From Escallonia rubra (lineage: Eukaryota; Streptophyta; Magnoliopsida; Escalloniales; Escalloniaceae): a DNA stretch of 64,000 nucleotides. The stretch covers positions 1,116,001-1,180,000 of the forward strand of contig JAVXUO010001488.1 in the NCBI GenBank assembly GCA_033065855.1. The letters run 5' to 3'. The position numbers were made by a program, and so were the translations under genes. Shown here piece by piece: positions 3,251 to 62,700 of the stretch. The notes under the pieces are model-generated. The model had not been told where the DNA came from. It saw only the letters and a list, made by a program, of their open reading frames with translations, and made no database searches. Position 1 is the first letter of the stretch. Every line of letters begins with the position of its first letter.

Positions 3251-3654
3251 CAGACTGGTGTCCCCTAAACTCCAAATCTTTCGAAAGAAGGATAACGAGA
3301 AAACAATTTAAAGTATGTTGGGCATATCAAATTCTCTAAAATTTTATTTTGACACTATCTCTCGACATTCTCGATTTAAGATTTGTATCAAAAAAATTAT
3401 TGATGACAAAAATTACGTGACCAAAAGAAGACGATATAAAATTATGAATTGTATTGTATAGTCGGCTACAGTTTGTAAGGTTAAGAGTAGTCATTTGAGT
3501 ATAGTCAGAATATCTTCATACTTTTATTCACTTTTCTTTTTGAAATTACACATTTTTAAGTATGCAATTGATGCATGGTTGTGAAAGTTATTGGAGTTAA
3601 ATATGTTCCTTTTGGTACGTTCAAGAGCGTTTGATTATACTCGGTCTACTTAGG

Positions 3655-12529: not shown

Positions 12530-12764
12530 GTTTGGCACGCCTAATAAGATATGCCAAAAGGATAAAATAAGAGAAGATTTATTTTTCAGTCGGACAAAGG
12601 AGGATAAGGATTTAATCCCGTATGTGCTTGCGACGAATATCGGAATACAATTCAGGTAACTCTAATATTCAACCAAATTGCAAGCTCAATCACCCACAAC
12701 CACCAAAACACCACCCATTGCAACCCACAACTACAGTAACGCCACCCATCGCACCACCACCATT

Positions 12765-15245
12765 GAATATATCACACCTTAACCACCACTGAACACCCCA
12801 CTACCTCCCTGTCAATTGTCTGTCCCACCAACCCGAATCCCCCCCCCCCCCCATATAGAGACAACAAAAGTCTGTCAGTGGAGCAGGCCAAAAGCGGATG
12901 GGTTCCATGGAGGTGGTGATGTGCAGGCGGTGCACGTTGTGCGATAGTGGGTGTTGTGCCTCCATTGATGCTTGTTGTGATTGATGTCGCGTAGCTTGAC
13001 CCGTTTCTTATCCCCAATTGTCTGGACAAAAACAACCCCTCCCCCCCCCCCTACCTCCCTGTCACCACCACCACCATTGAATATATCACACCTTAACCAC
13101 CACTGAACACCCCACTACCTCCCTGTCAATTGCATGTCCCACCAACACGAATCCCCCCCCCCCATAAAGAGACAACAAAAGTCTGTCAGTGGAGCAGGCC
13201 AGAAGTGGATGGGTTCCGTGGAGGTGGTGATGTGCAGGCGGTGCACGCTGTGCGACAGTGGGTGTTGTGCCTCCATCGATGCTTGTTGTGATTGATGTGG
13301 CGTAGCTTGGCCCGTTTTCTTATCCCCAAGTGCCTGGACAAAAACAACCCCCCCCCCAACTACCTCCCTGTCACCACCACCATTGAATATATCACACCTT
13401 AACCACCACTGAACACCCCACTACCTCCATGTCAATTGCATGTCCCACCAACACGAATCCCCCCCCCCCCAATAAAGAGACAACAAAAGTCTGTCAGTGG
13501 AGCAGGGCAGAAGCGGATGGGTTCCGTGGAGGTGGTGATGTGCAGGCGGTGCACGCTGTGCGACAGTGGTTGTTGTGCCTCCATCTATGCTTGTTGTGAT
13601 TGATGTGGCGTAGCTTGACCCGTTTCTTATCCCCAAGTGTCTGGACAAAAACAACCCCCCCCCCCCCAACTACCTCCCTGTCACCACCACCATTGAATAT
13701 ATCACACCTTAACCACCACTGAACACCCCACTACCTCCCTGTCAATTGCATGTCCCACCAACACGAATCCCCCCCCCCATAAAGAGATAACAAAAGTCTG
13801 TCAGTGGAGCAGGCCAGAAGCGGATGGGTTCCGTGGAGGTGGTGATGTGCAGGCGGTGCACGCTGTGCGACAGTGGGTGTTATGCCTCCATCTATGCTTG
13901 TTGTGATTGATGTGGCGTAGCTTGACCCGTTTCTTATCCTCAATTGTCTGGACAAAAACAACCCCCCCCCCCCCACTACCTCCCTGTCACCACCACCATT
14001 GAATACATCACACCTTAACCACCACTGAACACCCCACTACCTCCCTGTCAATTGCATGTCCCACCAACACGAATCCCCCCCCCCCCCATATAGAGACAAC
14101 AAAAGTCTGTCAGTGGAGCAGGCCAAAAGCGGATGGGTTCCATGGAGGTGGTGATGTGCAGGCGGTGCACGCTGTGCGACAGTGGGTGTTGTGCCTCCAT
14201 CGATGCTTGTTGTGATTGATGTGGCGTAGCTTGGCCCGTTTTCTTATCCCCAAGTGCCTGGACAAAAACAACCCCCCCCCCCCACTACCTCCCTGTCACC
14301 ACCACCATTGAATATATCACACCTTAACCACCACTGAACACCCCACTACCTCCCTGTCAATTGCATGTCCCACCAACACGAATCCCCCCCCCCCCCATAT
14401 AGAGACAACAAAAGTCTGTCAGTGGAGCAGGCCAAAAGCGGATGGGTTCCATGGAGGTGGTGATGTGCAGGCGGTGCACGCTGTGCGACAGTGGGTGTTG
14501 TGCCTCCATCGATGCTTGTTGTGATTGATGTGGCGTAGCTTGGCCCGTTTTCTTATCCCCACGTGCCTGGACAAAAACAACCCCCCCAACTACCTCCCTG
14601 TCACCACCACCATTGAATATATCACACCTTAACCACCACTGAACACCCCACTACCTCCCTGTCAATTGTCTGTCCCACCAACACGAATCCCCCCCCCCCC
14701 CCCCAATATAGAGACAACAAAAGTCTGTCAGTGGAGCAGGCTTGCTGGCGGATGGGTTCCGTAGAGGTGATGATGTGCAGGCAGTGCACGCTGTGCAACA
14801 TTGGGTGTTGTGCCTCCATCGATGCTTGTTGTGATTGATGTGGCGTAGCTTGGCCCGTTTTCTTATCCCCAAGTGCCTGGACAAAAACAACCCCTCCCCC
14901 CCCCCCCCCACACACACACACACACACACACACAACCCAAATTATAAAATTATTTCACGGAAGTGGTGGGATAAAATCAGTTCGGTGGATAGCTAATTCA
15001 CATCTTATATTTGTAACAAAAACCAAATGGTGAATAGAATAGTCTGTCAGTGGAGCAGGCTTGCTGGCGGATGGGTTCCGTAGAGGTGATGATGTGCACG
15101 CTGTGCAACATTGGGTGTTGTGCCTCCATCGATGCTTGTTGTGGTGTAGCTTGACCCGTTTCTTATCCCCAAGTGCCTGGACAAAAATAACAACCCCCCA
15201 CCCGCTCTCCCTCTCCAACCTAAATTATACAATTATTTCACGGAA
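12765..15245. repeat. Tandem satellite, 8 copies of a ~309-bp unit with poly-C tracts
   Basis: The anchor GTCAGTGGAGCAGGC occurs at about 12873, 13183, 13493, 13800, 14108, 14418, 14727 and 15043, giving a 307-316 bp period. Each full unit has CACCACCATTGAATATATCACACC, a first C-run of 10-15, the anchor, GGTGGTGATGTGCAGGCGGTGCACGC in pieces, GGACAAAAACAA and a second C-run. The last unit is shorter and follows a CA repeat. Most minus-strand ORFs of 80-100 codons here are one repeated frame through the unit and are not called as genes. Confidence 0.92.
14910..14934. repeat. (CA)n microsatellite
   Basis: About 12 CA dinucleotides directly after a poly-C run at the end of satellite unit 7. Confidence 0.9.
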
Positions 15246-23774: not shown

Positions 23775-24413
23775 CTACAATTTGGTCTTGTAATGACAGC
23801 TCTGGTGGCTCAAGCTTTTAGTCGCGATACTGACATTCAAATCACACGTTGTATAAGACACGACGTGAAAATTGAACAGCAGTATCTTCACTTTGCCGGA
23901 AATCCTCGTGAAAATCGTCAACGGCAAGGCGCCGGCGATGACGTCAGAATAGGCATTGGAATTGGACAGCAACCGATCCGCCAGCACGGTGAGCGTCAGG
24001 TTCATGGCTTTCGTTTCGTCGGCACCGATCTTCCCGGCGGGAAGAGGCACCTCTCCCACGACCTCGCCCCTGTACTTGATCAGACCGGAGCTGTCGGTGT
24101 ACTTGAAACCGACCTTGTTAGGATTCTGAACGGAGAGATTGACGTCGAGGGTGATGTTGAGGTGCACCCGGAAGCGCGCAATGTCGAGGGAGAGATCGAA
24201 GTCCTTGAGGGAAACGGAGTTGACGGTGTTAACGGGACGCTTGGCTTTGAAGACGGTGAGGGCTAGAATGACGATGAGGAGAACTAAGGCGAGGAGAAAT
24301 AAGGTGACGGCCAAGCATATGTTTCTTCTTCTCCTTTTCCGGCGTTTGTTGATTTGGCGATCTGGGTCTGGGAGGTCTCTCATGGTTTTCCCCTGTTTGG
24401 ATTCTACTTCCAT
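23775..24413 (-). CDS. LEA_2 (NDR1/HIN1-like) membrane-anchored protein, copy 1
   Basis: An intronless gene of 212 codons. The N-terminus is short and basic (KRRKRRRR at about residues 23-30), followed by one transmembrane helix (about 32-56, CLAVTLFLLALVLLIVILAL) and then an extracytoplasmic LEA_2 domain (about 75-190). The domain carries the hallmark words DVNLSVQNPNKVGFKY, YRGEVVGEVPLPAGKI and LTLTVLADRLL. LEA_2/NHL proteins are single-pass membrane proteins linked to stress and pathogen responses; the biochemical role of this one is unknown. The start fits the first ATG of the frame and a TATA-like CTTATAAAG about 85 bp upstream. The long plus-strand ORF over it is a shadow. The neighbouring copy at 28.5 kb is about 95% identical. 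Confidence 0.9.
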   Translation of the reverse strand: MEVESKQGKTMRDLPDPDRQINKRRKRRRRNICLAVTLFLLALVLLIVILALTVFKAKRPVNTVNSVSLKDFDLSLDIARFRVHLNITLDVNLSVQNPNKVGFKYTDSSGLIKYRGEVVGEVPLPAGKIGADETKAMNLTLTVLADRLLSNSNAYSDVIAGALPLTIFTRISGKVKILLFNFHVVSYTTCDLNVSIATKSLSHQSCHYKTKL

Positions 24414-24496
24414 GGGATTGGATTGGATTGAACTGGATTAAGGGTATAATTTGGTTTAGCTTTTGGGTTGTAAAAGCTACGTACAAAAGCTTTAAT

Positions 24497-28462: not shown

Positions 28463-29098
28463 CTACAATTTGGTCTTGGAATGACAGCTCTGGTGGCTCA
28501 AGCTTTTAGTCGCGATGCTAACAATCAAATCACACGTTGTATAAGACACAAAGTGGAAATTGAAGAGTATCTTCACTTTGCCGGAAATCCTCGTGTAAAT
28601 CGTCAACGGCAAGGCGCCGGCGACGACGTCAGAATAGGCATTGGAATTGGACAGCAACCGATCCGCCAGCACGGTGAGCGTCAGGTTCATGGCTTTCGTT
28701 TCGCCGGCACCGATCTTCCCGGCGGGAAGAGGCACCTCTCCCACGACCTCGCCCCTGTACTTGACCAGAGCGGAGCTGTCGGTGTACTTGAAACCGACCT
28801 TGTTAGGGTTCTGAACGGAGAGATTGACGTCGAGGGTGATGTTGAGGTGCACCCGGAAGCGCGCAATGTCGAGGGAGAGGTCGAAGTCCTTGAGGGAAAC
28901 GGAGTTGACGGTGTTAACGGGACGCTTGGCTTTGAAGACGGTGAGGGCTAGAATGACGATGAGGAGAACTAAGGCGAGGAGAAATAAGGTGACGGCCAAG
29001 CATATGTTTCTTCTTCTCCTGTTCCGGCGTTTGTTGATTTGGCGATCTGGGTCTGGGAGGTCTCTCATGGTTTTCTCCTGTTTGGATTCTACTTCCAT
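28463..29098 (-). CDS. LEA_2 (NDR1/HIN1-like) membrane-anchored protein, copy 2
   Basis: An intact 211-codon duplicate of the 23.8-kb gene, with the same basic N-terminus, single transmembrane helix (about 32-56) and LEA_2 domain. It differs by roughly ten substitutions (for example GLIKY to ALVKY and CDLNVS to CDLIVS) and a one-residue deletion in the KILLFNF segment. The open frame is kept, which suggests recent duplication or some constraint. However, about 214 bp directly upstream in copy 1, including its TATA-like box, are missing here. Expression is therefore doubtful or relies on other sequence. Predicted location is the plasma membrane or ER; specific function is unknown. Confidence 0.85.
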   Translation of the reverse strand: MEVESKQEKTMRDLPDPDRQINKRRNRRRRNICLAVTLFLLALVLLIVILALTVFKAKRPVNTVNSVSLKDFDLSLDIARFRVHLNITLDVNLSVQNPNKVGFKYTDSSALVKYRGEVVGEVPLPAGKIGAGETKAMNLTLTVLADRLLSNSNAYSDVVAGALPLTIYTRISGKVKILFNFHFVSYTTCDLIVSIATKSLSHQSCHSKTKL

Positions 29099-29134
29099 GG
29101 GATTGGATTGGATTGAACTGGATTAAGGGTATAA

Positions 29135-32985: not shown

Positions 32986-33056
<71 letters not shown>
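32986..33056. repeat. (TA)n tract at the left MULE junction
   Basis: About 35 TA dinucleotides end directly at the MULE terminus. The same dinucleotide tract continues after the right terminus at 42626-42663. Confidence 0.95.
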
Positions 33057-33059
<3 letters not shown>

Positions 33060-33252
33060 AGCTGATCCCTTGACCGCGTAGGCAAAATAGGATATCTTGC
33101 CAGCGCGATCTGGCCGTCCATCCCGAAGGGATGGACGGTCCAGATCACTTTTTTTTGCGGCGCTGTCAGTCGTCCGCTACACAGTCTCGCGGACGGCTCT
33201 TTTTACCATCTTGCCCTCGCTCACCCGTCCGCTACACAGTCTAGCGGACGAC
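33057..33252 (+). repeat. MULE left terminal inverted repeat
   Basis: Identical to the complement of 42430-42625. Inside is a hairpin CGTCCATCCC-GAA-GGGATGGACG (about 33115-33137) and two GTCCGCTACACAGTCT(A/C)GCGGAC palindromes near 33172 and 33226. Confidence 0.93.
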
Positions 33253-33440
33253 ATTCTTGGGCCAACAAAAAGTAGTCCGCTACACTGTCTAGCGGACGAC
33301 TGTGTCCGTCAAACCACCCACTTCCCCCTGACAGTTGTCACATCAGTCGATGCACGTCTGTTACTTTGTCGTTATCCCAGCGTCCGCAACACAGTGTAGC
33401 GGACGTTGGCAAGCATTCGAATACTTCTAAACTTCTATTC

Positions 33441-33512
33441 ATTCCTTCTTCTCACAATCAAAGTATTCCTTCTTCTCACAATCAAACTATTCCTTCTTCT
33501 CACGATCAAACC
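33441..33512 (+). repeat. 24-bp repeat x3 in the leader of the PMD-Ulp1 gene
   Basis: Three consecutive units of ATTCCTTCTTCTCACAATCA plus four bases. They lie between the TIR and the start codon, probably in the 5' UTR. A likely leader intron follows (GTAAGT at 33580 to TTTCAG at 33799). Confidence 0.85.
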
Positions 33513-33808
33513 AGCGGCGTTGGCAAGTAGATCGGCGCAATTTCTTTGCAAGAAATCCTTTAATCGTCTCATCAATCACGTAAGTTCACAAACTAATCCT
33601 TACTTTGTTCATAATCTAGAGTTCATCTTGCGGCGTTGGCAAGTAGATAGGCACTATGCTAGCGTTTGTCAATGTATATACATATATATTATATATGTGT
33701 ATTGCGTATTATCTGATCACATGCTAGCGCTGAATATGCTAGCGTTGTATGTTTGGGAATGTTTACGCTTCCAACCTTGCCCTCTTTCCATTATTTCAGT
33801 TGCAAAAA

Positions 33809-36800
33809 ATGGATTTCAACCCTGGACCAGAAGATTCGTCCGTATTATATGACCAAGCATCCCATATCAGTACGCTCATATGGGATGGTGGAGTAAGATA
33901 CTTATTTTATCGTTTATATCGTTTATTTTGCTTACGTATTTCAGTTGCGAACGTTGTATAGTGTTTATTTTGCTTAAATAATATTTATTAATTCGTAGGA
34001 AAGAGCACTTGTCAACACGGTAGAAGTAAGCGATAATTTCAACGCCTGGAAATTGAACAGAACCCAGAAAAGATTACTGCGTGGGATTGGGTTTGGGATT
34101 TTCACGCATGGGCAGATCTTTCAACAACTTGACCGGCACTTAATAGGTGCCCTTGTTGAAAGGTGGAGAAGTGAAACGAATACGTTTCACTTCCCTCTCG
34201 GAGAGATGACAATTACCCTAGAAGATGTAGGGTTCATCTTAGGGTTACCGGTGACGGGGCGGCCGGTAATAGCTCATCCGTCCGAAGCAACGAATAAGAG
34301 GACCGCTAGGGACTTCTTTACTTCGGTACCCCAGGATGGATTTAGCAGTGGTGGTATCAAGTTGAAGTGGTTGGTAGATACCTACGGGGTTTTGCCGGAA
34401 AACTATACGGGCCATGACCTTGTGCTGTACACACAAGCCTTCCTCTTGTGGGTGATGGGGGCAATATTATTCCCAACGACGTCGAAGAACACGGTCAGCG
34501 TCAAATATATACCGTTTTTGCGTAACCTGGCTGAGGTTGGGGATTATGCCTGGGGTGCAGCAACTCTTGCATACCTGTACCGAGCATTGCACAAGGCAAC
34601 GAGGCCCGACTCCAAAGCGATATGTGCATGTCTCTCGCTATTGCAGGTATATCATACAATTCTTCATTACGTGCTCTTTGTTGTTTTTTTTTGTTGTTGA
34701 ATGGACAATAAATGTTGACGATACTTTTTTCAATGTCTTTGCTCTCAGGTGTGGTCTTATGAACACCTTGCTACCGGCGCACCCAGGCGTAGGGACGGAA
34801 CAGATAATGTGTGGCCTCGGTTGTGCGCCTGGGAGTACAGCCGGAAGGAAACCCACTACGAGAGGAGAGACGATCCCCATCACAACATTTCATACTATCG
34901 GGGGGAGCTCGACTCGTTATCTCCTGGCCAGATGCGATGGGCACCGTACAAACGTTTGGCGCGACGGGTGGGAGAGTCGTTCGTCTTCACGCTCTCCGGG
35001 TTGCAACGCACACCCCTGATCCACTTCGAGGTCGCAGAGTGGCAGCTGCCGGATCGCGCTATGCGCCATTTTGACTGCCTGCAGGGGTTGCCAGCCGGTG
35101 CGCCAGATATGAGGCTTAACAGGAACCCACCGGGTGTCGGACTGTTTGGCAGGGCGAATGCGCACGAGTTGTGCGCGCGTGAAATTGAGGTCTGGAATTC
35201 TTGGCAGGACACGCTGGCGGCCATTGTGTCGGAGCCTGACCCCGTCATCAGTATCGAACAGTACAACGAGTGGTACTACCGCATCACCCGGAGGAGAGTA
35301 GCTCCAGTAAGGTTTGAACGCGGGGAGAAGTACCACCCTAGGGGTCAGATCGATGAGCACATGGCATACAATCTGGTAAGTTGCCCAACCAGTGCTTCTA
35401 ATTGAACTTGATCATTCTAAGTGTGTACGAAGTTACTTATTTATTATCTCTCTGGATGTAGGTTAATGCCTCGTTCGCCTTCTTCCAGAAGTTGAGCGAG
35501 CGGAAGGATTTGGTGGATGCCATGGGCGAGGAGCTTCGCCAACAGGCTGAAGCGTTGGCGGTTGGCTGCGGGAATTTTTTGCGGCAAGCATCGGGACAGC
35601 CAAACCCGGGAATGGGTTATCCGGGGTGGCAGCGGCCGTTTGTTCCCGAAGGATGCACCGATCCCTCGGGACAGACTTCGGGAGTGAGCCAGGGATATGG
35701 TTTTCCCTCTGTACCAGAGATGGCTGGTGATTGGGGACCGCCAAGCACCATGGGCCAGGCTCAAGCGCCGTGGGATTATTACAGTGCGCCCTCCTTCTCT
35801 TTACGATTGGATTCGGAACCCCAACCCCTCTCCCAGAGTCAAGTCACGCAAGACTGGATTTTCGGAAACATCAGTCTGCCCATTGTCCCGTGGGCAGGAC
35901 CATCTATTGCCGAAGGCGGGCAATACCCCCCCGTTGACCCCCCCGAAGGAGTGCAATATCCCCCCGTCGACCCCCCCGAAGGAGTGCAATATCCCCCCGT
36001 CGACCCCCCCGAAGGAGTGCAATATCCTCCCGTCGACCCCCCCGAAGGAGTGCAATACCCCCCGGTCGACCCCCGAGGGCAATATCGCAAAGGGCATCCG
36101 TTGAAGCCCCTAAAGCCGCAGAAATGCCAGATAATCAGAGAGCGTTATTTTAGCGGCGTCCCGCATGACCAAGCGTTGTATAGTGTGGATCATCCGGAGG
36201 GCATGGATTACATTTGCTCGTGGGGAGAACTCGCCTCGCTGGCTCCGGGGAGTTGGTTAGACACCGGTGTCGTCTCCACCTACGTGGAGATTCTGAGGGA
36301 AAGGTGTCGGCAGCAGCCGAGCTATCCGGCCGTTTTTCTGTTCGATGCCTTTTTTCATCAGATGCTAGTGTCTGAATGGCAGGAGTGGGTCGAACATAGG
36401 GGGAAGAAAAAGTTGGCCCAGTGGAGACCGTCCTTTAACCTAGGAGCATATATTAATAGGGATAGTCCGGTGAGCGCAAGTGTTGCCGATGTGTTTCTAA
36501 TCCCATTTCTAGGGCACAGCCACTGGTACTTGGTTTGCTACTCCCCAACAACTAAAGTCGTATCGGTGATCGACAGTCTCCACGACGATACTCATCAGAT
36601 GCCTGTGCTGCACATGTACAAAGCCCAATTGGACGCGTTGGTAATATTACGATCGCTGTATAATTCTCTGATTCTATCTTGCCATAAATTTTAACTCGTG
36701 TCTTACGCCATTTTCTGTTTCTCGCAGAATATTTTTTGTGCAATGGTCAATCGTGCCCGTGATGTCCCCGTACCGGCGCGGCCAAATCTCAATAGGCGAT

Positions 36801-37039
36801 TGAAGAAGAGGAGGCCCAAGCAACGTAACACTTCGGACTGCGGCGTCTTCCTTTGCATGTACATGGATTTCATTTGTCGCTCTGAGAGCCTCAAGGCGGC
36901 CGTCTGGAGCCAAGCAGAAGTTGAAGGCTATAGATATAGAATGGCTTGGCAAATTATGAAAGGCCGGCCTAGAGCGGTTAGGTTTATAGAAAATCCGGCT
37001 AATGACGAGAATCCGGCCCAACATGCGGACCCCAGTTGA
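33809..37039 (+). CDS. Plant mobile domain-Ulp1 (C48) protease fusion of the MULE, 5 exons
   Basis: Exons 33809-33892, 33999-34646, 34749-35375, 35462-36640 and 36728-37039 join in phase 0 with GT-AG introns and give 949 codons. The N-terminus (GPEDSSVLYDQASHISTLIWDG) and residues 40-450 show a plant mobile domain (PMD), including FHFPLGEMTITLEDV and GLPVTGRPV. Residues about 606-657 are five 11-residue YPPVDPPEGVQ repeats. Residues about 700-900 are a Ulp1-type cysteine protease with His in GHSHWYL (about 797), Asp in VIDSL (about 814), and Gln and Cys in KQRNTSDCGVF (about 878 and 884), so the triad looks intact. PMD proteins occur in host MAIN factors and in MULEs; Ulp1-like genes occur in Kaonashi MULEs. 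It probably acts in the nucleus on SUMO-like conjugates or on silencing, which is inference. It converges on the transposase gene. Confidence 0.88.
35919..36075 (+). repeat. 33-bp coding minisatellite in the PMD-Ulp1 linker
   Basis: Five near-identical 33-bp units encode YPPVDPPEGVQ. Units 2-5 differ by only a few bases, so copy number is recently changed. It probably forms an extended proline-rich linker between the two domains. Confidence 0.95.
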
Positions 37040-37229
37040 AATTGTATCATAACAGTAGTTTTTACATAAATCGTACGCAATTGGTGTGATTTGATTTGTG
37101 TTGTCGTTGGTGTGATTTGATTTGTGTTGTCGTTGGTGTGATTTGATTTGTGTTGATTTCTGTTGTCGAATACTGATTTTTCTGATGACGTAAAATGAAG
37201 ACCAAATTTTTCTAAGTGTCGGTAACAGA

Positions 37230-38400
37230 AGTTTCTGCTGCGCCGTCCGCTACATTGTATCGCGGAGGTAAAATGAAGACCAAATTTTTCTAAGTGTTGA
37301 TAACAAAAGTTTCTGCTGCGTCGTCCGCTACATTGTCTCGCGGACGTAAAATGAAGACCAAAAGTTTCTGCTGCACCGTCCGCTACATTGTATCGCGGAG
37401 GTAAAATGAAGACCAAAAGTTTCTAAGTGTTGATAACAAAAGTTTCTGCTCCGTCGTCCGCTACATTGTCTCGCGGAGGTAAAATGAAGACCAAATTTGT
37501 CTAAGTGTTGATAACAAAAGTTTCTGCTGCTCCGTCCGCTACATTGTATCGCGGAGGTAAAATGAAGACCAAATTTTTCTAAGTGTTGATAACAAAAGTT
37601 TCTGCTGCGCCGTCCGCTACATTGTATCGCGGAGGTAAAATGAAGACCAAATTTTTCTAAGTGTTGATAACAAAAGTTTCTGCTGCTCCGTCCGCTACAT
37701 TGTCTCGCGGAGGTAAAATGAAGACCAAAAGTTTCTAAGTGTTGATAACAAAAGTTTCTGCTGCTCCGTCCGCTACATTGTCTCGCGGAGGTAAAATGAA
37801 GACCAAATTTTTCTAAGTGTTGATAACAAAAGTTTCTGCTGCTCCGTCCGCTACATTGTCTCGCTCCGTCGTCCGCTACATTGTCTCGCGGACGTAAAAT
37901 GAAGACCAAAAGTTTCTGCTGCACCGTCCGCTACATTGTATCGCGGAGGTAAAATGAAGACCAAAAGTTTCTAAGTGTTGATAACAAAAGTTTCTGCTCC
38001 GTCGTCCGCTACATTGTCTCGCGGAGGTAAAATGAAGACCAAATTTTTCTAAGTGTTGATAACAAAAGTTTCTGCTGCTCCGTCCGCTACATTGTCTCGC
38101 GGAGGTAAAATGAAAACCAAAAGTTTCTAAGTGTTGATAACAAAAGTTTCTGCTCCGTCGTCCGCTACATTGTCTCGCGGAGGTAAAATGAAGACCAAAT
38201 TTTTCTAAGTGTTGATAACAAAAGTTTCTGCTGCTCCGTCCGCTACATTGTCTCGCGGAGGTAAAATGAAAACCAAAAGTTTCTAAGTGTTGATAACAAA
38301 AGTTTCTGCTCCGTCGTCCGCTACATTGTCTCGCGGAGGTAAAATGAAGACCAAAAGTTTCTGCTGTGCCGTCCGCTACATTGTATCGCGGACGTAAAAT
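37230..38400. repeat. Tandem array of ~78-bp units with a TCCGC...GCGGA palindrome
   Basis: About 17 occurrences of TCCGCTACATTGT(A/C)TCGCGGA run from about 37247 to 38375, mostly 76-79 bp apart. They are separated by GTAAAATGAAGACCAAA, TTCTAAGTGTTGATAACAAA and AGTTTCTGCTG. Some units are shortened to about 50 bp or fused. The array lies between the 3' ends of the PMD-Ulp1 and B3 genes. Long minus-strand ORFs through it are products of the repeat. Confidence 0.95.
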
Positions 38401-38511
38401 CCAAATTTTTCGAAGTGTTTATAACAAAAGTGTATTTCAAACGACACAATTAAGCGAGGAAAAATTTCGAAACACAATCAACAAGAACTCAAATAATTTT
38501 ATTTCAAATAA

Positions 38512-38975
38512 TTAGGGTTCACATTGGGGGAAAGAAATTTTTTCACAAGTGCTCCGATCAAAGATTACAACTTCAAAATCCCACCACCCAAGGTGTTCAA
38601 ATACTACAAAGTCCCCGAGTTCGAGGCCATGCTGGCGCACGAAGACGTTCCAACCCTCTGCGAATTGCTTTTTTTGGGGTCGGCCGGGCTTCAGCTTGAT
38701 TTCAACCTGCCATGCCCCCTTGCGGCTATATAATCTTGCACTGTCATGAATTGTTGTAAATTGATTGGTGAAGGCTTCCGGTATGTCCTAACAAACACAA
38801 TACACAAAAAATAGGTTAGTTTTTAACCAAAAGATTTAACACACGAAAATACAGAGATAGAGGGATGGCATACAAGTTCATTCTCAAACCCCGGCATCAT
38901 GACTTTGAAAAAGTGTTTGCCTGCCAGGTGCAAGTTGCCAATAAAATCGTAGGTGGTCTCCGATCCAGAAGCCAT
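38512..38975 (-). CDS. Stand-alone B3 DNA-binding domain protein of the MULE, 2 exons
   Basis: Exon 1 is 38874-38975 and exon 2 is 38512-38787. The 86-bp GT-AG intron joins them in phase 0 to give 125 residues; no single ORF shows it. The product is almost entirely one B3 domain: KHFFKVMMPGF (about 20-30), IPEAFTNQF after the splice, WQVEI, FAEGWNVFVRQHGLELGDFVVFEHLG and FEVVIFDRSTCEK. These match the order FFKV-P.F - L.IP..F - W.V.. - F..GW..F...L..GD..VF - F.V.IF of plant B3 domains (REM-like). B3 domains bind DNA in the nucleus. The gene lies between two groups of palindromic repeats and is oriented like the transposase. B3 genes are common in plants, so it may be captured; its intact frame inside a young element suggests use by the element. 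Confidence 0.85.
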
Positions 38976-39144
38976 CGAGGTCGGCGTTGAGGGGGGGACG
39001 GTTTATCGCCGGAGTTGTGGATCACCTGTGGGTCGCCGGAGATGGAGTATTGGCCTGGGCTAGATGTTCCAGACAGAGAGAGCAGAGAGACTGTTGGACT
39101 GATAACAGCCGATTGCCCGATATGATTAATTTATATCATATAGA

Positions 39145-39380
39145 CTTATCCGCTACATTGTATAGCGGACATGAAAGGCCAAAAGTTATGACGTCCGCTA
39201 TATTATATAGCGGACAGTAAAGAAGACCAAAAGTTTGCCTGCTCTAACGTCCGCTACATTGTATAGCGGACGTACAAAGACCAAAAGTTTTACTTCGATG
39301 CCACCCGTCCGCTATACAATATAGCGGACGTAAAAGACCAAAGTCAATGATGTCCGCTACATTGTATAGCGGACGGGGAT
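39145..39380. repeat. Second cluster of TCCGCTA...TAGCGGA palindromes (5 copies)
   Basis: Copies at about 39149, 39194, 39248, 39307 and 39352 are more perfect than those of the main array (for example GTCCGCTACATTGTATAGCGGAC). They are separated by AAAGACCAAAAGTTT. They lie just upstream of the B3 gene and downstream of the transposase gene. Confidence 0.93.
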
Positions 39381-39525
39381 TACAAAATAAAAGAAAAACC
39401 TCGTAATAAAGACTTTAGATTTGATTCGATGGCCTCTCATAGGTCCATTTTAAAAAAATTCCAGTACCCGGTAGAAAAATTATCCCTCGAATATTATTAC
39501 AAATGTCATAAAGTTGTACAAAAAA

Positions 39526-41823
39526 TTAAAGGTCCACTGCAGCTTGTTCGTCCTCATCTTCGGCGTCACCTTCTTCCCCGTCTTGCAAACCCCTTGAACT
39601 TATCCCCAGTGCCTTGTAATGGTTCCGCTTGTCGTGGTCGGTCATTTTGTTGCACAATGCACACCTTCGCAGCTTTTTAGGTTGAGTTGCCGTTTCAATA
39701 GAGCTTTTCATCCGCGTAGATCTCTTGCGGCCTTTCGTTTGCGATATAATTGGATCCAACAAACGGATATCATTGTCGTCTTCCTCCTCCGGCTCGTCAT
39801 CTTCTGATACCCCCGTCGTAGGCTCGGTGTCAATCGCATTGGTGACTGAAGCTGCTTCCAACTGGTCGACGATGGGCTCTTGTTGCTGAGCTACCTCGAG
39901 GAGATGTTTATAACCGACCATTGTAGCAGCACCTTTTACGGACAAACGGGTGAACATCGTCACCAGATGATTATACCGCAGCGTCTCTGATTCTTCAAAG
40001 TCAGTATACGAGTGCTCCGGAAAGGAAATGGTACCGTGCAACCTGTTTGCACCTTTTGTCCACCGTGGCAAGACGTATTTATCGGGGATTGTCCTGATAT
40101 TCTTCTGGGTGAAAAACCGCAGAACGTGTCTACACAGGATGCCATGGAACTCAAACTTCTTGCAAACACATGTCACCGAGTCCGTCAATGTGTCGTGGCT
40201 CACCGTATACATTCTGCGCAGCTTCTCAGGGACTAGGTCATTCACGAGCGAATAAACCTTGTACTCACGCGTAGACATTTCTGCCACCTTGTTTATACTG
40301 TATCGTCCGGATTTTCGCAGCTCTACTTGGTATAGCAAGAAGATCTCCTTCGTATAGACTTTGGCACCGTTCATCTCCAGCGGGGTCTCGAGCAACGTTC
40401 TCCTTTGTTTGTACGTTGTTGCAAAGTCGGCAGCCCTTTCTTTTACGAACAACGAAGCTACCGCTTTTTGTGCGGATGCAACGAAAGTCTTCAAATTGGT
40501 AGCTGTACCCACATAACTATCGAACGTGGCATTCATGGATTCACTCCTGCCCGTCGTTTTCATGCCCGCTGAAAAATACCTCCTCGTGTAAACGCCAATC
40601 CATTGCTCTTTGCGCTCGTACAAGTTCTGGAGCCACTCGTTGTCTTGCAATGAGTAATCCCGAACAAGCTTTTCCCACCTCTCCTCGAATTCCTCAATCG
40701 TTAACGACTTGAGGACGCACTTGTCAAAATCCTGTTTAAAGTCTTGATACTTTGCGTACACGTGATGCAGCCGTTCCGGGTATTTGTTGCTTATGTGCCA
40801 GGTGCACAAGTTGTGCCGAGTGTCTGGGAAGACGGTCGCAATAGCCTTCTTCATTGCCAAATCTTGATCGGTGATGATCACTTTGGGTGCTTTGAAGTTC
40901 ATTGCTTCCAGCCACGTCCTAAACAACCATTCAAAAGAACTCTCGGTCTCGTCCCTTAACAAGGCGAACCCGAACAGGATGGAGTGATAATGATGATTGA
41001 CCCCCGTGAAAGGGGCGAACGGCATCGAGTACTTGTTGGTACGGTATGTGGTGTCGAACGTCACGACATCCCCAAAATGCTTATAAGCAAGCCTCGAACG
41101 ACCGTCGACCCAAAAAATTGTGCTAACTCGATGCTCGTCGTCAAGTTTATAATCGAAGGTCAACTGCGGGTCCTCCATCTGCATCCGTTTCAATAGGCTC
41201 ATTGTGGCTTGAGCATCATTGAGGTCATACGCGGCTCGTCTATGGGTTCGGACCGCGTTACGAACGTCTGTCGTGTTAAAGGTCAAATTTTGAATTCCCC
41301 CAGCCTGTTCAGCAAGAACATTAATCATGTCGGTAGGTCCTAGTCGCGCATTGCTCATTGTCTGAATCAGGCTCCTTGCGACCTTACCCATCTTCTTGTG
41401 TTGATGCATCTCACTCACCTTAGAAGGGGTTACTAACGGGTGATTGTGTGCCAGTTCCAGGCTGGTAATAAGCCAATGGTCTTGTTTGGGTTTGTAGCTT
41501 ACGAACATCTTGACCTGGCAATTTGTGCGCTCAAAGCAGTCCCGTCTTCTACGCGGATATCCTATTTCGTCCTCACTGTCATCATTGCCTACACATGTCT
41601 CATTTTGCACTGGGTTTCTGCTCCTATGGCACTCGTATAAGCGAGAGCATATCTTTCTGGTTATGGTGCTCGTTCTTGAAGTCTTTATTCTAATGCCAAA
41701 ACCAACCCTCAATGAATACGCTCGAAAACATGCTTCAGCTTCTTCCAACGTAGCAAATGTCCGTCCTAGATACGGATCACTAGCATCTACGGGGACGTTG
41801 GAGCTCGACACGAAATCAGACAT
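39526..41823 (-). CDS. FAR1/MURA-type MULE transposase
   Basis: An uninterrupted frame. The start is taken at 41823 (MSDFVSSSNVP, 765 codons), because a likely leader intron (donor near 42186, acceptor near 41837) makes the upstream ATG intronic. Residues about 20-130 are a FAR1-type zinc-binding domain (GRTFATLEEAEACFRAYSLRVGFGI, then C and H ligands ending LAHNHPL). Residues about 245-345 are the MULE transposase core with Asp in VTFDTTYRTNKY (about 257), Asp in IITDQDLAMKKA (about 319) and CTWHI (about 340); Glu in GRSESMN (about 428) is a candidate third acidic residue. A SWIM zinc finger, CVCKKFEFHGILCRHVL, is at about 552-568. The C-terminus has CALC...H....H, an altered zinc knuckle. 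It should bind the terminal repeats and catalyse transposition. Host FAR1-related factors share this architecture, but its position inside TIRs marks it as the transposase. Confidence 0.92.
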   Translation of the reverse strand: MSDFVSSSNVPVDASDPYLGRTFATLEEAEACFRAYSLRVGFGIRIKTSRTSTITRKICSRLYECHRSRNPVQNETCVGNDDSEDEIGYPRRRRDCFERTNCQVKMFVSYKPKQDHWLITSLELAHNHPLVTPSKVSEMHQHKKMGKVARSLIQTMSNARLGPTDMINVLAEQAGGIQNLTFNTTDVRNAVRTHRRAAYDLNDAQATMSLLKRMQMEDPQLTFDYKLDDEHRVSTIFWVDGRSRLAYKHFGDVVTFDTTYRTNKYSMPFAPFTGVNHHYHSILFGFALLRDETESSFEWLFRTWLEAMNFKAPKVIITDQDLAMKKAIATVFPDTRHNLCTWHISNKYPERLHHVYAKYQDFKQDFDKCVLKSLTIEEFEERWEKLVRDYSLQDNEWLQNLYERKEQWIGVYTRRYFSAGMKTTGRSESMNATFDSYVGTATNLKTFVASAQKAVASLFVKERAADFATTYKQRRTLLETPLEMNGAKVYTKEIFLLYQVELRKSGRYSINKVAEMSTREYKVYSLVNDLVPEKLRRMYTVSHDTLTDSVTCVCKKFEFHGILCRHVLRFFTQKNIRTIPDKYVLPRWTKGANRLHGTISFPEHSYTDFEESETLRYNHLVTMFTRLSVKGAATMVGYKHLLEVAQQQEPIVDQLEAASVTNAIDTEPTTGVSEDDEPEEEDDNDIRLLDPIISQTKGRKRSTRMKSSIETATQPKKLRRCALCNKMTDHDKRNHYKALGISSRGLQDGEEGDAEDEDEQAAVDL

Positions 41824-41836
41824 TGTGAAACAAGAG

Positions 41837-42300
41837 CTGTGTAGAAATAGACTACGCTTAACAATCAAATGGCATTTCTAACTGAAAATATTACCTAAAA
41901 ATTAGGATGGCAAACATACGGTATGCATAATCTCAAAAGTGTCTCCAAATTAACAATTACTAATTTATTGAACATAACAAATTTAAATTAGTAAGATAAA
42001 TAGACGAATTCATCATGCCAAAAAATCGAATTAAACTATAATGAATTAAATATAAAGTTAACAAATTATACCTTTTTGATGAACATCATGTCTAGAACAT
42101 CACAAAAAATCTAGAGTATAAAATCACAAATTGATGAATACAGTGACAAATTTCTAGAACATCAAGAAAACTTGAAGCAAACTTACCTTGCTTGAGCGAA
42201 GCTTGAAGCAAGTGTTACTCGAAGCTTGAAGGCAGCTGAAAATGGAAGCGAGTCTGAAGGAGAAGAAAATTGTGCTGAAAGAATTGAGTAGAAGAAAATT
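41837..42300 (-). promoter_or_regulatory. Likely leader and leader intron of the transposase gene
   Basis: On the minus strand a pyrimidine-rich leader with a repeated TTTCAGCACAATTTTCTTCT (about 42230-42310) reaches CAAG/GTAAGT at 42187. An acceptor ACACAG lies at about 41837, 14 bp before the chosen ATG. This is inferred from splice-like sequence only. Confidence 0.4.
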
Positions 42301-42429
42301 GTGCTGAAAGAAAGGGAATGGGCAATACTGTCCGCTATACTGTGTAGCGGACAGAATTGTGTCAGATGTGTCAGAATGACAGTCGTCCGCTGGACAGTGT
42401 AGCGGACTACTTTTTGTCGCAGGTTGTCA

Positions 42430-42623
42430 GTCGTCCGCTAGACTGTGTAGCGGACGGGTGAGCGAGGGCAAGATGGTAAAAAGAGCCGTCCGCGAGACTG
42501 TGTAGCGGACGACTGACAGCGCCGCAAAAAAAAGTGATCTGGACCGTCCATCCCTTCGGGATGGACGGCCAGATCGCGCTGGCAAGATATCCTATTTTGC
42601 CTACGCGGTCAAGGGATCAGCTC

Positions 42624-42625
<2 letters not shown>
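42430..42625 (-). repeat. MULE right terminal inverted repeat
   Basis: Perfect inverted copy of 33057-33252 as far as I could compare base by base. Two further palindromes (about 42331 and 42384) lie just inside it. Confidence 0.93.

Positions 42626-42663
<38 letters not shown>
42626..42663. repeat. (TA)n tract at the right MULE junction
   Basis: Continues the dinucleotide tract interrupted by the element, then returns to unit-1-like sequence (ATAGAAGTATCAT). Confidence 0.9.
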
Positions 42664-42667
<4 letters not shown>

Positions 42668-58236: not shown

Positions 58237-58842
58237 TGTCAGGGATTTACCACGTAAAATCCCTGTACGCATTCGCATTAAGAGAAGGTCCACCATGGAA
58301 GAAACAGGGGAGAGGACTGCTGAGAAAGGAAGAGAAAAGATACAAGTTATCAACAAAGAAGGAGCTGAGCAAGTGAAGACCACGCAGGAGTCCAAGGAGA
58401 CTGAGCCAAGCGCGAGTCTCAAGATTCATTTTACCACCAAGGCACGTGAGACTCACGTGGGAAGAAATATTAGTTGAAGATTTGCTGAGTTGTCTGAGTC
58501 ATTAAGGAAATATTAACATTAATGAAAGAGAAGATGTTGAGTTCAAGGAGGATCATTGCCTGAACCAAATTAGCTTCTTTTATCTTATTTTTAGTTTTAT
58601 TTTATGTTTTAGCATCTTTCTGTTTCCACAATTTCAGGAGTTCGTTTTGACAACCTTTATGATGTGTAGCTGTGGGTATTCAGTGAATAAACTTTTGGAA
58701 GATTTCCTCTCTTTTTGTTCTTTCTACTTCTTCTCTCTATTCTATCTTGGCCAAGTAATTGGATTTCTATATCAGAGACAATTCATCACGAATTTCTCTG
58801 AAACTTCACAGAAGATTCAAGTTCAGTAACTAGAATCTGACA
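58237..58842 (+). repeat. 5' LTR of the Ty3/gypsy element
   Basis: 606 bp, TG...CA: it begins TGTCAGGGATTTACC and ends TAGAATCTGACA. The same start recurs at 63514. Compared with the 3' LTR it lacks 10 bp in GTAGCTGTGGGTATTC and 2 bp in GCGCGAGTC. Confidence 0.9.
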
Positions 58843-58844
58843 AT

Positions 58845-58857
58845 TGGTATCCAGAGC
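58845..58857 (+). other. Primer-binding site, initiator tRNA-Met type
   Basis: TGGTATCCAGAGC starts two bases after the LTR. The standard complement of the tRNA-iMet 3' end is TGGTATCAGAGC, so one extra C is present. Confidence 0.75.
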
Positions 58858-58895
58858 AGGTTTATTTCCTCTCAAACTTCATCAAACCACTACTA

Positions 58896-59717
58896 ATGGG
58901 GTACAATACCAGACAAGGGAAGCAACACCAGCTGGATGAGCATGTGAGCCTTATGGAGGCTCAATTCGCAGATCATTTCAGTGCCATCGATGACCAACTG
59001 ATGAACTTGAAGGAAACCATTTCTGAGCTGCCAAAGCTTCGAGCTTCAGTGGAACACTTGAGGGAAGAATTACCTGCAGTGAGGCACTCTCTAGCTGAGA
59101 TGCAGATGTTGATGCAACAGCTAGTTAACATGCGAGAAGGAGAGAGCTCGAATCCCAAACAATTTAGGCCACCCAAAGGACCTGAATTCGTACACAAGGA
59201 GTATACCCAGACAACAAATGGTAATTCAATTCCAAAACTCCCTAAACTAGATTTTCCTAGGTTTAATGGAGATGATTCTTATGGTTGGGTGAGAAAAGCA
59301 GAGAAGTTTTTTGAATTTAACCCAGTTGATGAACAATATAAAGTGAGTTTTGCATCAATTCATTTTGAAGGTCAAGCTGAGTTTTGGTTTGGTACATATA
59401 CCAAAGCAAAAGGGAGGGTAACATGGACTGAATTTGTTAAAGACCTTAATGCTAGATTTGCTAGCCTATTTAGAGAAAGTATAGTGGGTGAGTTTCACAA
59501 ACTAAGACATACTTCTTCTGTGGAAATTTATTACAATGGGTTTGAAGCTCTAAGGTCCATGTTGGTCAGTGAAGGGTGTAAATTTGACGAGGGATATTAC
59601 ATACAAAGTTTCGTGGGAGGGCTGAGGGATGATATAAGGCTGGAAATTGAAAAGTTTGAGCTCTATGATTTATCCAGAGCTATTTACTTGGCCAGAAAAC
59701 AGGAGGCTAGTATTTAA
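58896..59717 (+). pseudogene. gag: Retrotransposon Gag, ended by an in-frame stop
   Basis: 273 codons. The N-terminal coiled-coil-like region (about residues 14-80) is followed by the conserved Gag core (KLPKLDFPRFNGDDSYGWVRKAEKFF to LRDDIRLEI). A TAA at 59715-59717 interrupts what continues in the same frame toward the zinc knuckle and pol, so the original product was one Gag-Pol frame. Gag would form the cytoplasmic particle that packages the RNA. Confidence 0.85.
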
Positions 59718-59741
59718 AACACTTGGCATAACCCCAGGACT

Positions 59742-62700
59742 GTGATCAAACAAAGTTCACTTCCTATTTACCCCAACACTGCAAAAACTCCAGCTATCAA
59801 TTCCAATTTGAGACCTAAACCATTCTTAACCCATCCAAACCCACCAGCAAACCCTGTATTAGCCAATGCTCATCATAAAGGCCTACTGCCTACACCACAA
59901 AACCCACCTCCACAAAGGCTAACTAGGGGATACTTTGATGACAGAAGAAGAAAAGGGCTCTGTTATTGGTGTGTTGAAGTGTTTACCCCTGGCCATAATT
60001 GCAAACATAAACAGGTGTCAATGTTAGTGATTGATGAAGAGGTGGAAGGAGACACACCCCTTGTGTATGATGAAGAAGAAAATATAACTGAAGATGAGGG
60101 AGCTAAGGATGGGCATGAGAAGGTGGAGATCACAGCAAATGCAATTACTGGGAGCTCAACCCATAACACCTTCAAATTATGGGGTCAACATAAGAAGAAG
60201 ACGTTCTCAATTCTCATTGACACAGGATCCACTCACAATTTTTTGGATCCTGCTACTGCTGCTAGGCTTGGATGTGTTTTTACTCCCACTGAAACCATGA
60301 TAATCATGGTTGCTGATGGCAACAAGGTGGAAAGTGATGCAATGTGCCAAGATTTTTCATGGACCTTGCAAGATATTGAGTTTAAATCAAACATGATGGT
60401 TCTGCCATTAGGAGGTTGTGAGTGTGTTTTGGGCCTTCAATGGTTAAGGAAATTGGGACAAGTGCAGTTTGATTTTCAAGAAATGACTATGACCATCAAT
60501 GTTGAGGGAAGACCAATTACATTACATGGGGGCAATGGCAAAACAGAAGTGAAGTTATTATCAGCTACAGGTATGTTCAAGTACTTAACCCACAACCCAG
60601 GCTCCCTATATGGTCAAATCTATACCATTACTACTCTATCAATCAAGGAAGCAGGTGAACCACAACTTACAGCTCTATTGCACAACTTTTCGAATGTTTT
60701 TGATGAACCAAGGGGCTTACCACCAAAAAGGCCACAGGACCATCACATACCCATTATTCCAAATGCAACACCTGTTAGCCTTAGACCTTATAGATTGCCC
60801 TATGCACAGAACACAGAAGTAGAAAAGATAGTGCATGAGATGTTGGATTCAGGGATTATACAAACCAGCTCTTCACCCTTCAGTTCACCTGTATTATTGG
60901 TGAAGAAGAAAGATGGAACATGGAGGATGTGCATAGACTATAGGGGACTCAATAAAATCACCATCAAAAACAAATTCCCTATCCCTATTGTAGATGACTT
61001 ACTAGATGAGCTGCATGGAGCCCAATTTTTCACCAAATTAGACCTAAGAAGTGGCTACCACCAAGTGAGAGTGAGCCCTAAAGATGTCCACAAGACAGCT
61101 TTCTCTACTCATTTTGGACATTTTGAATTTTTTGTGATGCCATTTGGGTTGACAAATGCCCCGGCTACCTTTCAATCGGTGATGAATGACGTGTTTCAAC
61201 CATACCTCAGAAGCTTTGTTTTAGTATTCTTCGATGACATACTTGTTTATAGCCAGTCCTACAGTGAGCACTTAAACCATCTAGCCTTGGTGCTAAAAAT
61301 TCTGAGGGAGCACCAATTATTTGTGAAGTATTCCAAGTGCACTTTTGCAACTCAAGAAGTTGAGTATTTGGGTATATCATTTCCAAGCATGGGGTATCTG
61401 CAGATACAACCAAAATTGAAGCCATGACTGCTTGGCCTTTACCCAAGACACTCAAACAACTTAGGGGATTTCTTGGCCTAACTGGCTACTACAGGAAATT
61501 CATCCAAAATTATGGGATTATCAGTAAACCCTTGACCAAACTGCTACAGAAGAACAATTTTCATTGGAACCCTGAGGCTATTCAAGCTTTTGAGAAGCTC
61601 AAGAAGACCATGGTAAGTGCTACTGTGTTAGCTTTACCAAATTTTTCAGCACCTTTTGTGATTGAAGTGGATGCGAGTGATCAGGGTATGGGGGCTGTAC
61701 TTATGCAATCAGGTAAACCAATAGCTTTTTTTAGCAAAGCTTTCGGACCTAGAGCAAGGGCCATGTCTACCTATGAGAAAGAATTGATGGCCTTAGTGCA
61801 AGCAGTATTGCATTGGCACACTTACTTAAGCACTCAGCCTTTCACTGTTCTAACAGACCATTGTAGCCTGAAATATTTATTAGGCCAGAGAGTGACTTCA
61901 TTACTCCAACAAAAATGTTTATCTAAACTGCTGGGGTTCACCTTTGAGATACACTATAGGGATGGAAATGAGAACAAGGCTGCAGATGCATTGTCCAGAA
62001 TCCCACATGAAAAACAAGAGGAAGGAAGTTGTCTGGCAATTTCACAGGTCACACCACTATGGCTCACTGAACTTCAAGCTAGCTATGAAGAAGATCAAGA
62101 CATCCAACAACAGCTGCAACAACTTCTTTTGGATCCATATGCTACATCTGAATACCAGTTAGAACAGGGAACCCTCAGATATAGGGGCAAACTCTGTGTT
62201 GGAAGAGGGGGCAACCTAAGACAACAAATCATACACACCTTGCACTCAACAGGAATTGGGGGACATTTTGGAGTAACAGCTACCTTCAAGAGAATTGCTG
62301 CCATATTTTATTGGCCTTCACTCAGGAAGGAAGTCAAAGAGTGGGTACAACAATGTGAAGTATGTCAGCAAAACAAGTCTGAACATGTAGCCAGCCCTGG
62401 ATTTTTACAGCCATTACCCATCCCAAACCAACTATGGAGTAGTGTTTCTATGGACTTCATTGAAGGTCTTCCCAAATCTGACAATAAGGAGGTCATACTT
62501 GTGGTGGTGGACAGACTTCGTAAGTTTTCACACTTCATTGCTCTCAGTCATCCCCACACAGCTCAACAGGTAGCTCAAGTCTATTTTGATCAAGTTTTTA
62601 AACTGCATGGGACTCCCGACAATATCATTACAGATAGAGGAAGTGTTTTCATAAGTCAGTTTTGGCAAAAATTGTTTCAATTATTGGAAACCAAGCTGAG

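What the first reader, a model, noticed from the sequence alone, without database searches (positions are those of the whole stretch)
33057..42625. A young MULE that unites a FAR1-type transposase, a PMD-Ulp1 fusion and a stand-alone B3 protein
Seen: 196-bp identical TIRs enclose three spliced or open genes with intact motifs. Known: MULEs with Ulp1 (Kaonashi) and MULE-linked PMD genes are described, and VANDAL MULEs carry DNA-binding anti-silencing genes (VANC). I do not know of a description of this triple set with a B3 gene. Inference: PMD-Ulp1 and B3 may be accessory factors that counter host silencing or aid transposition, giving the element its own de-repression kit.
Basis: partly seen in the sequence, partly recalled or inferred. 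Interest (0 to 1): 0.92.

Follow-up and report, generated by a model that had tools for sequence, protein, structure and literature searches.

The report
Plant transposon carrying regulator-like genes
A young plant transposon carries, besides its transposase, a DNA-binding-type gene and a protease-fusion gene, plus arrays of a 21-base palindrome, and the set recurs in other copies and in a related family, which suggests a self-control system that can be tested.

Summary
Identical 196-bp TIRs (33057-33252, 42430-42625), each beside an (AT)n run, enclose three open genes: PMD-Ulp1, a B3 protein and a FAR1/MULE/SWIM transposase. The host assembly matches Escallonia rubra (inferred). In 20 copies read, window included, B3 is intact in 17, the transposase in 15, PMD-Ulp1 and hence all three in 6. 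The genome holds 182 exact TIR ends. A sister family keeps the three genes in the same order in 3 of 5 long stretches read, with two extra small genes in 4. Between families transposase and PMD look constrained (dN/dS 0.24-0.47 and 0.25-0.41). B3 is inconclusive, except against a distant repeat-borne homologue (0.48, p 0.003). New here: 29 palindromes of exactly 21 bp, all in noncoding parts of the element, 16 in a 78-bp tandem array. The array segment holds 6-23 of them across 16 copies, and sister-family arrays have another centre. This resembles VANC-motif arrays of VANDAL elements. An anti-silencing role is inferred. New variant of a known kind.

The parts
32988..33056 (.). (AT)n microsatellite at the 5' border (insertion target)
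   Evidence: 18 of 19 elements with a readable flank sit in AT/TA runs, L026 does not
33057..33252 (+). 5' terminal inverted repeat, 196 bp
33173..33403 (.). four 21-bp palindromes TCCGC-N11-GCGGA (33173, 33228 in the TIR; 33276, 33383 subterminal)
33809..37039 (+). PMD-Ulp1 gene, exons 33809-33892, 33999-34646, 34749-35375, 35462-36640, 36728-37039 (949 aa); 11-aa repeats encoded at 35910-36074
   Evidence: length differences of 33 nt or a multiple in several copies
37187..38400 (.). 78-bp tandem array holding 16 of the 29 palindromes, between the 3' ends of PMD-Ulp1 and B3
   Evidence: 6-23 palindromes in this segment across 16 elements
38512..38975 (-). B3-domain gene, exon 1 38874-38975, intron 38788-38873, exon 2 38512-38787 (125 aa)
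   Evidence: Escallonia herrerae homologue P0001
39149..39373 (.). five palindromes between the B3 start and the transposase stop
39526..41823 (-). FAR1-MULE-SWIM transposase gene, single exon, 765 aa
42331..42509 (.). four palindromes (42331, 42386 subterminal; 42434, 42489 in the TIR)
42430..42625 (-). 3' terminal inverted repeat, 196 bp
42626..42664 (.). (AT)n microsatellite at the 3' border

Best explanation
SHOWN: this is a complete-looking copy of a recently amplified, microsatellite-inserting MULE family in an Escallonia rubra-like genome (species inferred). It encodes a FAR1-type transposase and two accessory proteins, PMD-Ulp1 and B3, that recur as part of the element across copies and in a sister family. 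Its noncoding DNA carries a 21-bp palindrome at both ends, upstream of B3 and in a tandem array whose size differs between copies. INFERRED: the transposase cuts and inserts the element. One or more element-encoded DNA-binding proteins dock on the palindromes, with B3 my first choice and PMD-Ulp1 or the transposase next. Docking recruits activity (for PMD-Ulp1, removal of SUMO or a SUMO-like modifier) that keeps the element's own promoters open against silencing. The mode would be that of VANC in VANDAL elements, built from different proteins.
For: Intact domains and conserved transposase residues. 17 of 20 copies keep B3 and 6 of 20 keep all three frames. 38 closed elements among the 100 listed ends of 182, 18 of them 9.0-10.1 kb. 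Same gene order in sister-family stretches L039, L040 and L041. dN/dS below 1 between families for transposase and PMD and for B3 against L044. 29 of 29 palindromes of the window lie inside the element and outside the three genes, against a mean of 0.03 in a first-order simulation of the noncoding DNA. The same 21-bp register occurs in the sister family with a changed array centre. The array segment holds 6-23 palindromes in 16 elements whose transposase and B3 are 99-100% identical to the window's. VANC targets are motif tandem repeats in noncoding regions that expand, contract and diverge together (PMC5735166, PMC10398659; passages). Others have speculated that MULE-captured PMD serves anti-silencing (PMC5418596, passages).
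Against: No binding, expression or methylation data. B3 selection is weak: dN/dS 0.31 (5 S, 6 N), 0.57 and 1.32 (1 S, 5 N) against three sister-family copies, none significant. The B3 intron is more alike between window and L044 (75 of 85) than synonymous sites are, so the 0.48 has an uncertain yardstick. Within the family N/S is neutral. 14 of 20 copies have a broken, partial or missing PMD-Ulp1 and 3 of 20 lack B3. Palindrome centres show little compensatory covariation. A 1.4-kb derivative keeps exact TIR ends while the 600 bases read inside it match nothing of the element, so array and accessory genes are not needed in cis if it transposed.
Confidence: 0.47

Rival explanations
1. The palindromes are transposase-binding sites (FAR1 domain), spread through the element by repeat growth; B3 and PMD-Ulp1 assist or regulate transposition (for example transposase dose or SUMO state) and do not act on silencing.
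For: Two palindromes lie in each TIR and two more just inside each. The 1.4-kb derivative at C1105 ends in exact TIR sequence although the 600 bases read inside it match nothing of the element. The transposase is well conserved between families, as are the outer halves of the palindrome.
Against: 16 of 29 sites sit in the middle of the element between two 3' gene ends and 5 upstream of B3, not where an end-binding transposase needs them.
Confidence: 0.3
2. B3 and PMD-Ulp1 are passengers: captured host sequence that rides along without a function for the element.
For: MULEs commonly capture genes (PMC13317346, passages). Neutral N/S within the family. 14 of 20 copies have a broken, partial or missing PMD-Ulp1. 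B3 changes between the two families are not significantly constrained.
Against: dN/dS well below 1 between families for PMD and 0.48 for B3 against L044. B3 frame intact in all 17 copies that have both exons. The set is shared by two families, and an E. herrerae B3 homologue exists. Some frame breaks fall in the 33-bp repeat and could be nanopore assembly errors (inference).
Confidence: 0.15
3. The palindrome arrays are mere repeat growth, or a source of small RNAs that silences the element, with no docking role.
For: Tandem arrays grow by slippage (recalled); long MULE TIRs are often siRNA sources (PMC10398659, passage).
Against: The 21-bp register and outer halves are kept in both families although PMD DNA is only about 77% identical; none lie in the coding regions of the window element.
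Confidence: 0.08

Closest known systems
MuTAnT / AutoMuTAnT of Medicago truncatula (PMC4486113; parts 1-2 of 4 of the text seen)
   Same: MULE with long inverted repeats inserted in (TA)n microsatellites; Jittery-like transposase there, FAR1/SWIM transposase here
   Different: AutoMuTAnT is 4,873 bp with one five-exon transposase ORF and TIR mask GGGGTTTGCTAGAACA; here 9,569 bp, single-exon transposase, TIR GGGAGCTGATCCC, two accessory genes and palindrome arrays
VANDAL elements with VANC (PMC5735166, PMC10398659; passages)
   Same: MULE with accessory genes; short motifs in tandem repeats of noncoding DNA that vary in number and type between copies; tandem peptide repeats in an accessory protein (VANC variable region there, 11-aa repeats of PMD-Ulp1 here)
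   Different: VANC binding and loss of methylation are shown there. Here the accessory proteins are B3 and PMD-Ulp1, the motif is a 21-bp palindrome, and the TIRs are long and identical, while VANDAL TIRs are described as degenerate
Kaonashi (KI-MULE) and other Ulp1 MULEs (PMC2528002, PMC13317346; passages)
   Same: Ulp1 domain gene on the strand opposite to the transposase
   Different: KI-MULEs are non-TIR; Ulp1 is described there within a VANC-type gene, here it is fused to PMD
PMD-carrying MULEs (PMC5418596, PMC6446971 group table; passages)
   Same: PMD gene in a plant MULE, often antisense to the transposase
   Different: In the group table PMD goes with groups 42 and 45-50; the plant part of Jittery group 36 (FAR1, SWIM or CCHC) is listed with one ORF and no PMD, and the text has no 'B3 domain'
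Celery AgCh_028454 (P0124)
   Same: PMD and MULE transposase in one gene model; 32% identity over 38% of PMD-Ulp1
   Different: Weak DBD_Tnp_Mut match and no FAR1; no Ulp1 or B3 in that model

Membership tests
MULE superfamily | MULE transposase catalytic domain | tested here: met
   PF10551 3.7e-33; D257, D319, D321 and E428 invariant in 9 aligned proteins; catalytic roles recalled
MULE superfamily | terminal inverted repeats | tested here: met
   196 bp, identical
MULE superfamily | 8-11 bp target site duplication | tested here: inconclusive
   Flanks are AT/TA runs in 18 of 19 elements with a readable flank; L026 has another 5' flank but a broken 3' end
Jittery group (group 36 of PMC6446971) | FAR1 in N-terminus, SWIM (or CCHC) in C-terminus | tested here: met
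Jittery group (group 36 of PMC6446971) | one ORF | tested here: not met
   Three genes, five in the sister family; the table row describes members and is not a strict rule
Jittery group (group 36 of PMC6446971) | transposase falls in the Jittery clade | not tested
   No Jittery sequence was at hand
MuTAnT family | insertion into (TA)n microsatellites | tested here: met
   18 of 19 elements with a readable flank; L026 is the exception
MuTAnT family | its TIR sequence | tested here: not met
   GGGAGCTGATCCC against the published mask GGGGTTTGCTAGAACA
VANDAL/VANC | VANC-type gene (DUF1985; link recalled) | tested here: not met
   No such Pfam match to the three proteins at E up to 1
VANDAL/VANC | element-specific motif in tandem repeats of noncoding DNA | tested here: met
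   specificity seen only within the 64-kb window and the loci read, not genome-wide
VANDAL/VANC | protein binds the motif and removes silencing | not testable with these tools
   needs binding and methylation data
KI-MULE (Kaonashi) | Ulp1 domain antisense to the transposase | tested here: met
KI-MULE (Kaonashi) | no TIRs | tested here: not met
   196-bp TIRs

The most novel reading that the evidence does not exclude
An independently assembled, VANC-like self-derepression system: a MULE whose B3 protein (with PMD-Ulp1, and in the sister family a pair of orphan proteins) recognises a 21-bp palindrome that the element multiplies in noncoding arrays, so that protein and array evolve together family by family.
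Probability: 0.33. Interest if true: 0.88.

Novelty: new variant of a known kind. Interest (0 to 1): 0.72.

Why it matters
VANC is, to my knowledge, the best-studied case of a plant DNA transposon that undoes its own silencing in a sequence-specific way. A second system with other proteins, a clear palindromic motif and copy-to-copy array variation would show that the strategy arose more than once. It would also give a ready experiment: three proteins, one motif and near-identical copies with 6 to 23 sites in the array segment. It would give PMD and Ulp1, recurrent MULE genes of unknown use, a testable role.

Tried and rejected
Chance TIRs or assembly artefact: rejected (182 exact ends, 0 controls). 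Passenger genes: opposed, not excluded. Palindrome as a conserved hairpin stem: centre pairs show no strong covariation among 76 unique sites (positions 8/14 P 0.018, 6/16 P 0.063, 9/13 P 0.24, 7/15 and 10/12 none), so I favour protein recognition of the outer halves. Relatives in viral contigs, with B3 and with transposase alignment A1: none. Rfam and tRNA: nothing in the window. A count of the 11-aa repeat by pattern failed (0 or 1 per copy) and is not used. Structure prediction of B3 exon 2: queue full twice, not done. Not obtained because the tool was busy: genome-wide count of the palindrome, B3 protein search (48, 53, 90, 92, 111, 117; with P0001 62, 65, 67), transposase and PMD protein searches. 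DNA of E. herrerae was not in the genome searched here.
Full report
ANATOMY. The window lies at G000:C1345:1116001-1180000 of a 566,129,122-base assembly in 3,222 contigs. The published E. rubra draft is 566 Mb in 3,233 contigs (PMC10759652, passages), and E. rubra proteins match the window's PMD (P0122, 97% identical over 53% of the query; P0123, 79% over 64%). I infer Escallonia rubra or a very near relative. The element is 9,569 bp with two identical 196-bp TIRs, bordered by (AT)n on both sides. On the + strand: PMD-Ulp1 (949 aa). On the - strand: B3 (125 aa) and transposase (765 aa). The Ulp1 H, D and C motifs are present in the window protein (HSHW, DSL, SDCG; roles recalled); sister-family copies show corresponding residues in some translations and changes or frame breaks in others (by eye).

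RECURRENCE. A TIR query gave 47 matches, 40 of 2,099 first-look candidates being scored. From these I chose and fetched 20 stretches, with high TIR identity favoured; they make 19 elements because C45 came in two pieces; with the window 20. L022 and L025 share their 5' flank and may be one locus. B3: both exons with an intact frame in 17 of 20; missing in L020, L021 and L023. Transposase: full-length intact frame in 15 of 20 (L012 interrupted, L025 cut by the contig end, L011 and L021 deleted, L023 without a match in the stretch). PMD-Ulp1: intact frame in 6 of 20 (window, L015, L017, L019, L022, L026); the same six have all three frames open; the other 14 are broken, partial or without it. 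L014, L025 and L027 are cut by contig ends. Some PMD-Ulp1 frame breaks lie in the 33-bp repeat (for example gaps of 31, 32 and 35 bases) and could be nanopore errors; others do not. Exact 22-bp TIR ends: 86 forward and 96 reverse, controls 0 and 0. Of the 100 ends listed I paired 38 closed elements (adjacent + and - ends under 15 kb): 18 of 9.0-10.1 kb, 6 of 7-8.8 kb, 7 of 2.6-5.8 kb, 6 of 1.36-1.49 kb, 1 of 11.3 kb. The family is young: in the 12 fetched elements with both TIRs aligned end to end, each TIR matches the window's at 183 of 192 or better; L024 and L026 have one shortened TIR.

SISTER FAMILY. Querying with P0123 found 215 matches, 72 of 5,570 candidates scored; listed rows are 77-96% identical to P0123. 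L039, L040 and L041 carry PMD-Ulp1, B3 and transposase in the same order and relative orientation; the transposase is cut by the stretch or contig end in all three (with a frame shift near the cut in L039), and the B3 exon 1 frame of L040 is disturbed. L042 has PMD-Ulp1 and a different transposase (65% over its best 269 residues) on the same strand as PMD, and no B3 in the stretch. L043 is cut by the contig end. L039-L042 also hold two further open frames of about 143 aa between the B3 place and PMD-Ulp1, divergently transcribed and 35% identical to each other over 78 residues, with no Pfam family above cut-off. One of them has stops in L039. They match nothing in the window or in L001-L038.

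SELECTION. Between families (NG86; 8 of the 15 loci used for PMD): transposase pieces of 494, 396, 187 and 174 codons give dN/dS 0.24, 0.27, 0.35 and 0.47. PMD exon 2 gives 0.30-0.41 (six loci) and exon 3 0.25-0.31 (seven loci, L043 with one stop). I left out L031 exon 2 (0.56, badly aligned) and list apart L029, a closer locus with two stops per exon (0.50, 0.35). No significance test was run on these. B3: 0.31 (L039), 0.57 (L040 exon 2) and 1.32 (L041), none significant; L037 exon 1 has 0 S and 2 N. Against L044, a B3 gene of the same two-exon plan, dN/dS is 0.48 with p 0.003. But the B3 intron is 75 of 85 identical while about 40 of 71 synonymous sites are (p 8e-6), so either part of the gene was exchanged or the intron is constrained; B3 constraint is therefore probable, not settled. 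Within family 1, N/S is 21/9, 2/1 and 78/31 for transposase, B3 and PMD-Ulp1 against neutral expectations of 2.49, 2.63 and 2.43: no sign of selection (L027 and the PMD repeat left out; three stop changes in PMD-Ulp1). Synonymous divergence rises from B3 (0.01-0.07) through transposase (0.07-0.16) to PMD (0.19-0.39; L029 and L031 exon 2 left out), which points to exchange of modules between families.

PALINDROMES. A scan for TCCGC-N6..18-GCGGA in 64 kb found 29 sites. All are 21 bp long, all inside the element, none in the three genes: 2+2 in TIRs, 2+2 subterminal, 16 in the array, 5 between B3 and transposase; 500 first-order simulations of the noncoding DNA gave a mean of 0.03. A looser scan, one mismatch per half, found 30 in the window element and 23, 25, 22, 11 and 12 in L039-L043, against 1.1-2.0 in shuffles. 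Sister-family arrays keep the 21-bp register and mostly the outer halves but have another centre. In 16 family-1 elements with both borders, window included, the array segment holds 6 to 23 sites, although transposase and B3 are 99-100% identical to the window's. This is like the pattern described for VANC targets (PMC5735166, PMC10398659; passages). A genome-wide count could not be obtained, so specificity to these families is shown only within what I read.

WHO READS THEM is open. B3 is a plant DNA-binding domain; its best matches among solved structures are weak, VRN1 and At1g16640 (E 0.01 and 0.037). The transposase has a FAR1 domain. PMD-Ulp1 is the nearest in build to VANC-Ulp1 (KIU) genes and has 11-aa repeats that vary in number. 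I put B3 first because a stand-alone DNA-binding domain has no other evident use, but this is inference.

ORIGIN OF B3. The protein search found one relative among 5.8 billion sequences, E. herrerae RJ639_046830; only two candidates shared enough words, so this is a weak negative. A B3 profile search of the genome scored 150 of 1,397 candidates and did not list the window's own B3, so it is a capped list. By eye, 80 or more of the 150 rows share an open frame of about 88 codons, nearly all on different contigs; 15 rows have the identical score of 49.6 bits, C143 among them. The one read (L044, at C143) is 57% identical to the window's exon 2, with the intron at the same place. So B3 genes of this plan sit in more than one repeat; which element carries L044 is unknown.

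LITERATURE. Searches for this set found no description: (open-licence PMC papers only, listings). PMC6446971 lists FAR1 transposases without PMD in the plant part of its Jittery group (passages).

VERDICT. The element, the family and the co-occurrence are solid. Constraint on transposase and PMD is good, on B3 probable. Function is inferred.

Noticed in passing
L039:3440-3868(-), 4244-4675(+); L040:2460-2873(-), 3261-3692(+); also L041, L042: Two orphan open frames (about 143 aa, paralogous, divergent) in the sister family, no Pfam family above cut-off; pairwise dN/dS 0.24-1.9, few changes, mostly not significant; the second has stops in L039.
   Followed up: partly
G000:C143:18100-19050 (L044) and, by eye, 80 or more similar rows: A high-copy repeat carries another B3 gene; the one copy read has the same intron position as the window's. 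Its element type is unknown.
   Followed up: partly
window 38788-38873 against the L044 intron: The B3 intron is more alike (75 of 85) than synonymous sites of the exons (about 40 of 71; p 8e-6), as if part of the gene had been exchanged between families or the intron were constrained.
   Followed up: no
G000:C1105:178205-178804 (L045): A 1,364-bp element with exact TIR ends whose 600 bases read show no blastn match to the window element; its first bases look like part of a palindrome (by eye). Pack-MULE-like derivative with foreign filling.
   Followed up: partly
P0122 (E. rubra RJ640_023953): Gene model joins what looks like a different FAR1-type transposase C-terminus (by eye), this PMD and a PPR gene; likely an annotation across element and neighbours.
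   Followed up: no
window 12752-14904: Tandem array of seven 309-bp units, 94% matching.
   Followed up: no
window 23778-24437 and 28466-29122: Two very similar open frames of about 220 aa on the - strand (LEA-like by recall), a recent duplication.
   Followed up: no
window 58830-63691: Gypsy-type retrotransposon gag-pol frames (by eye).
   Followed up: no
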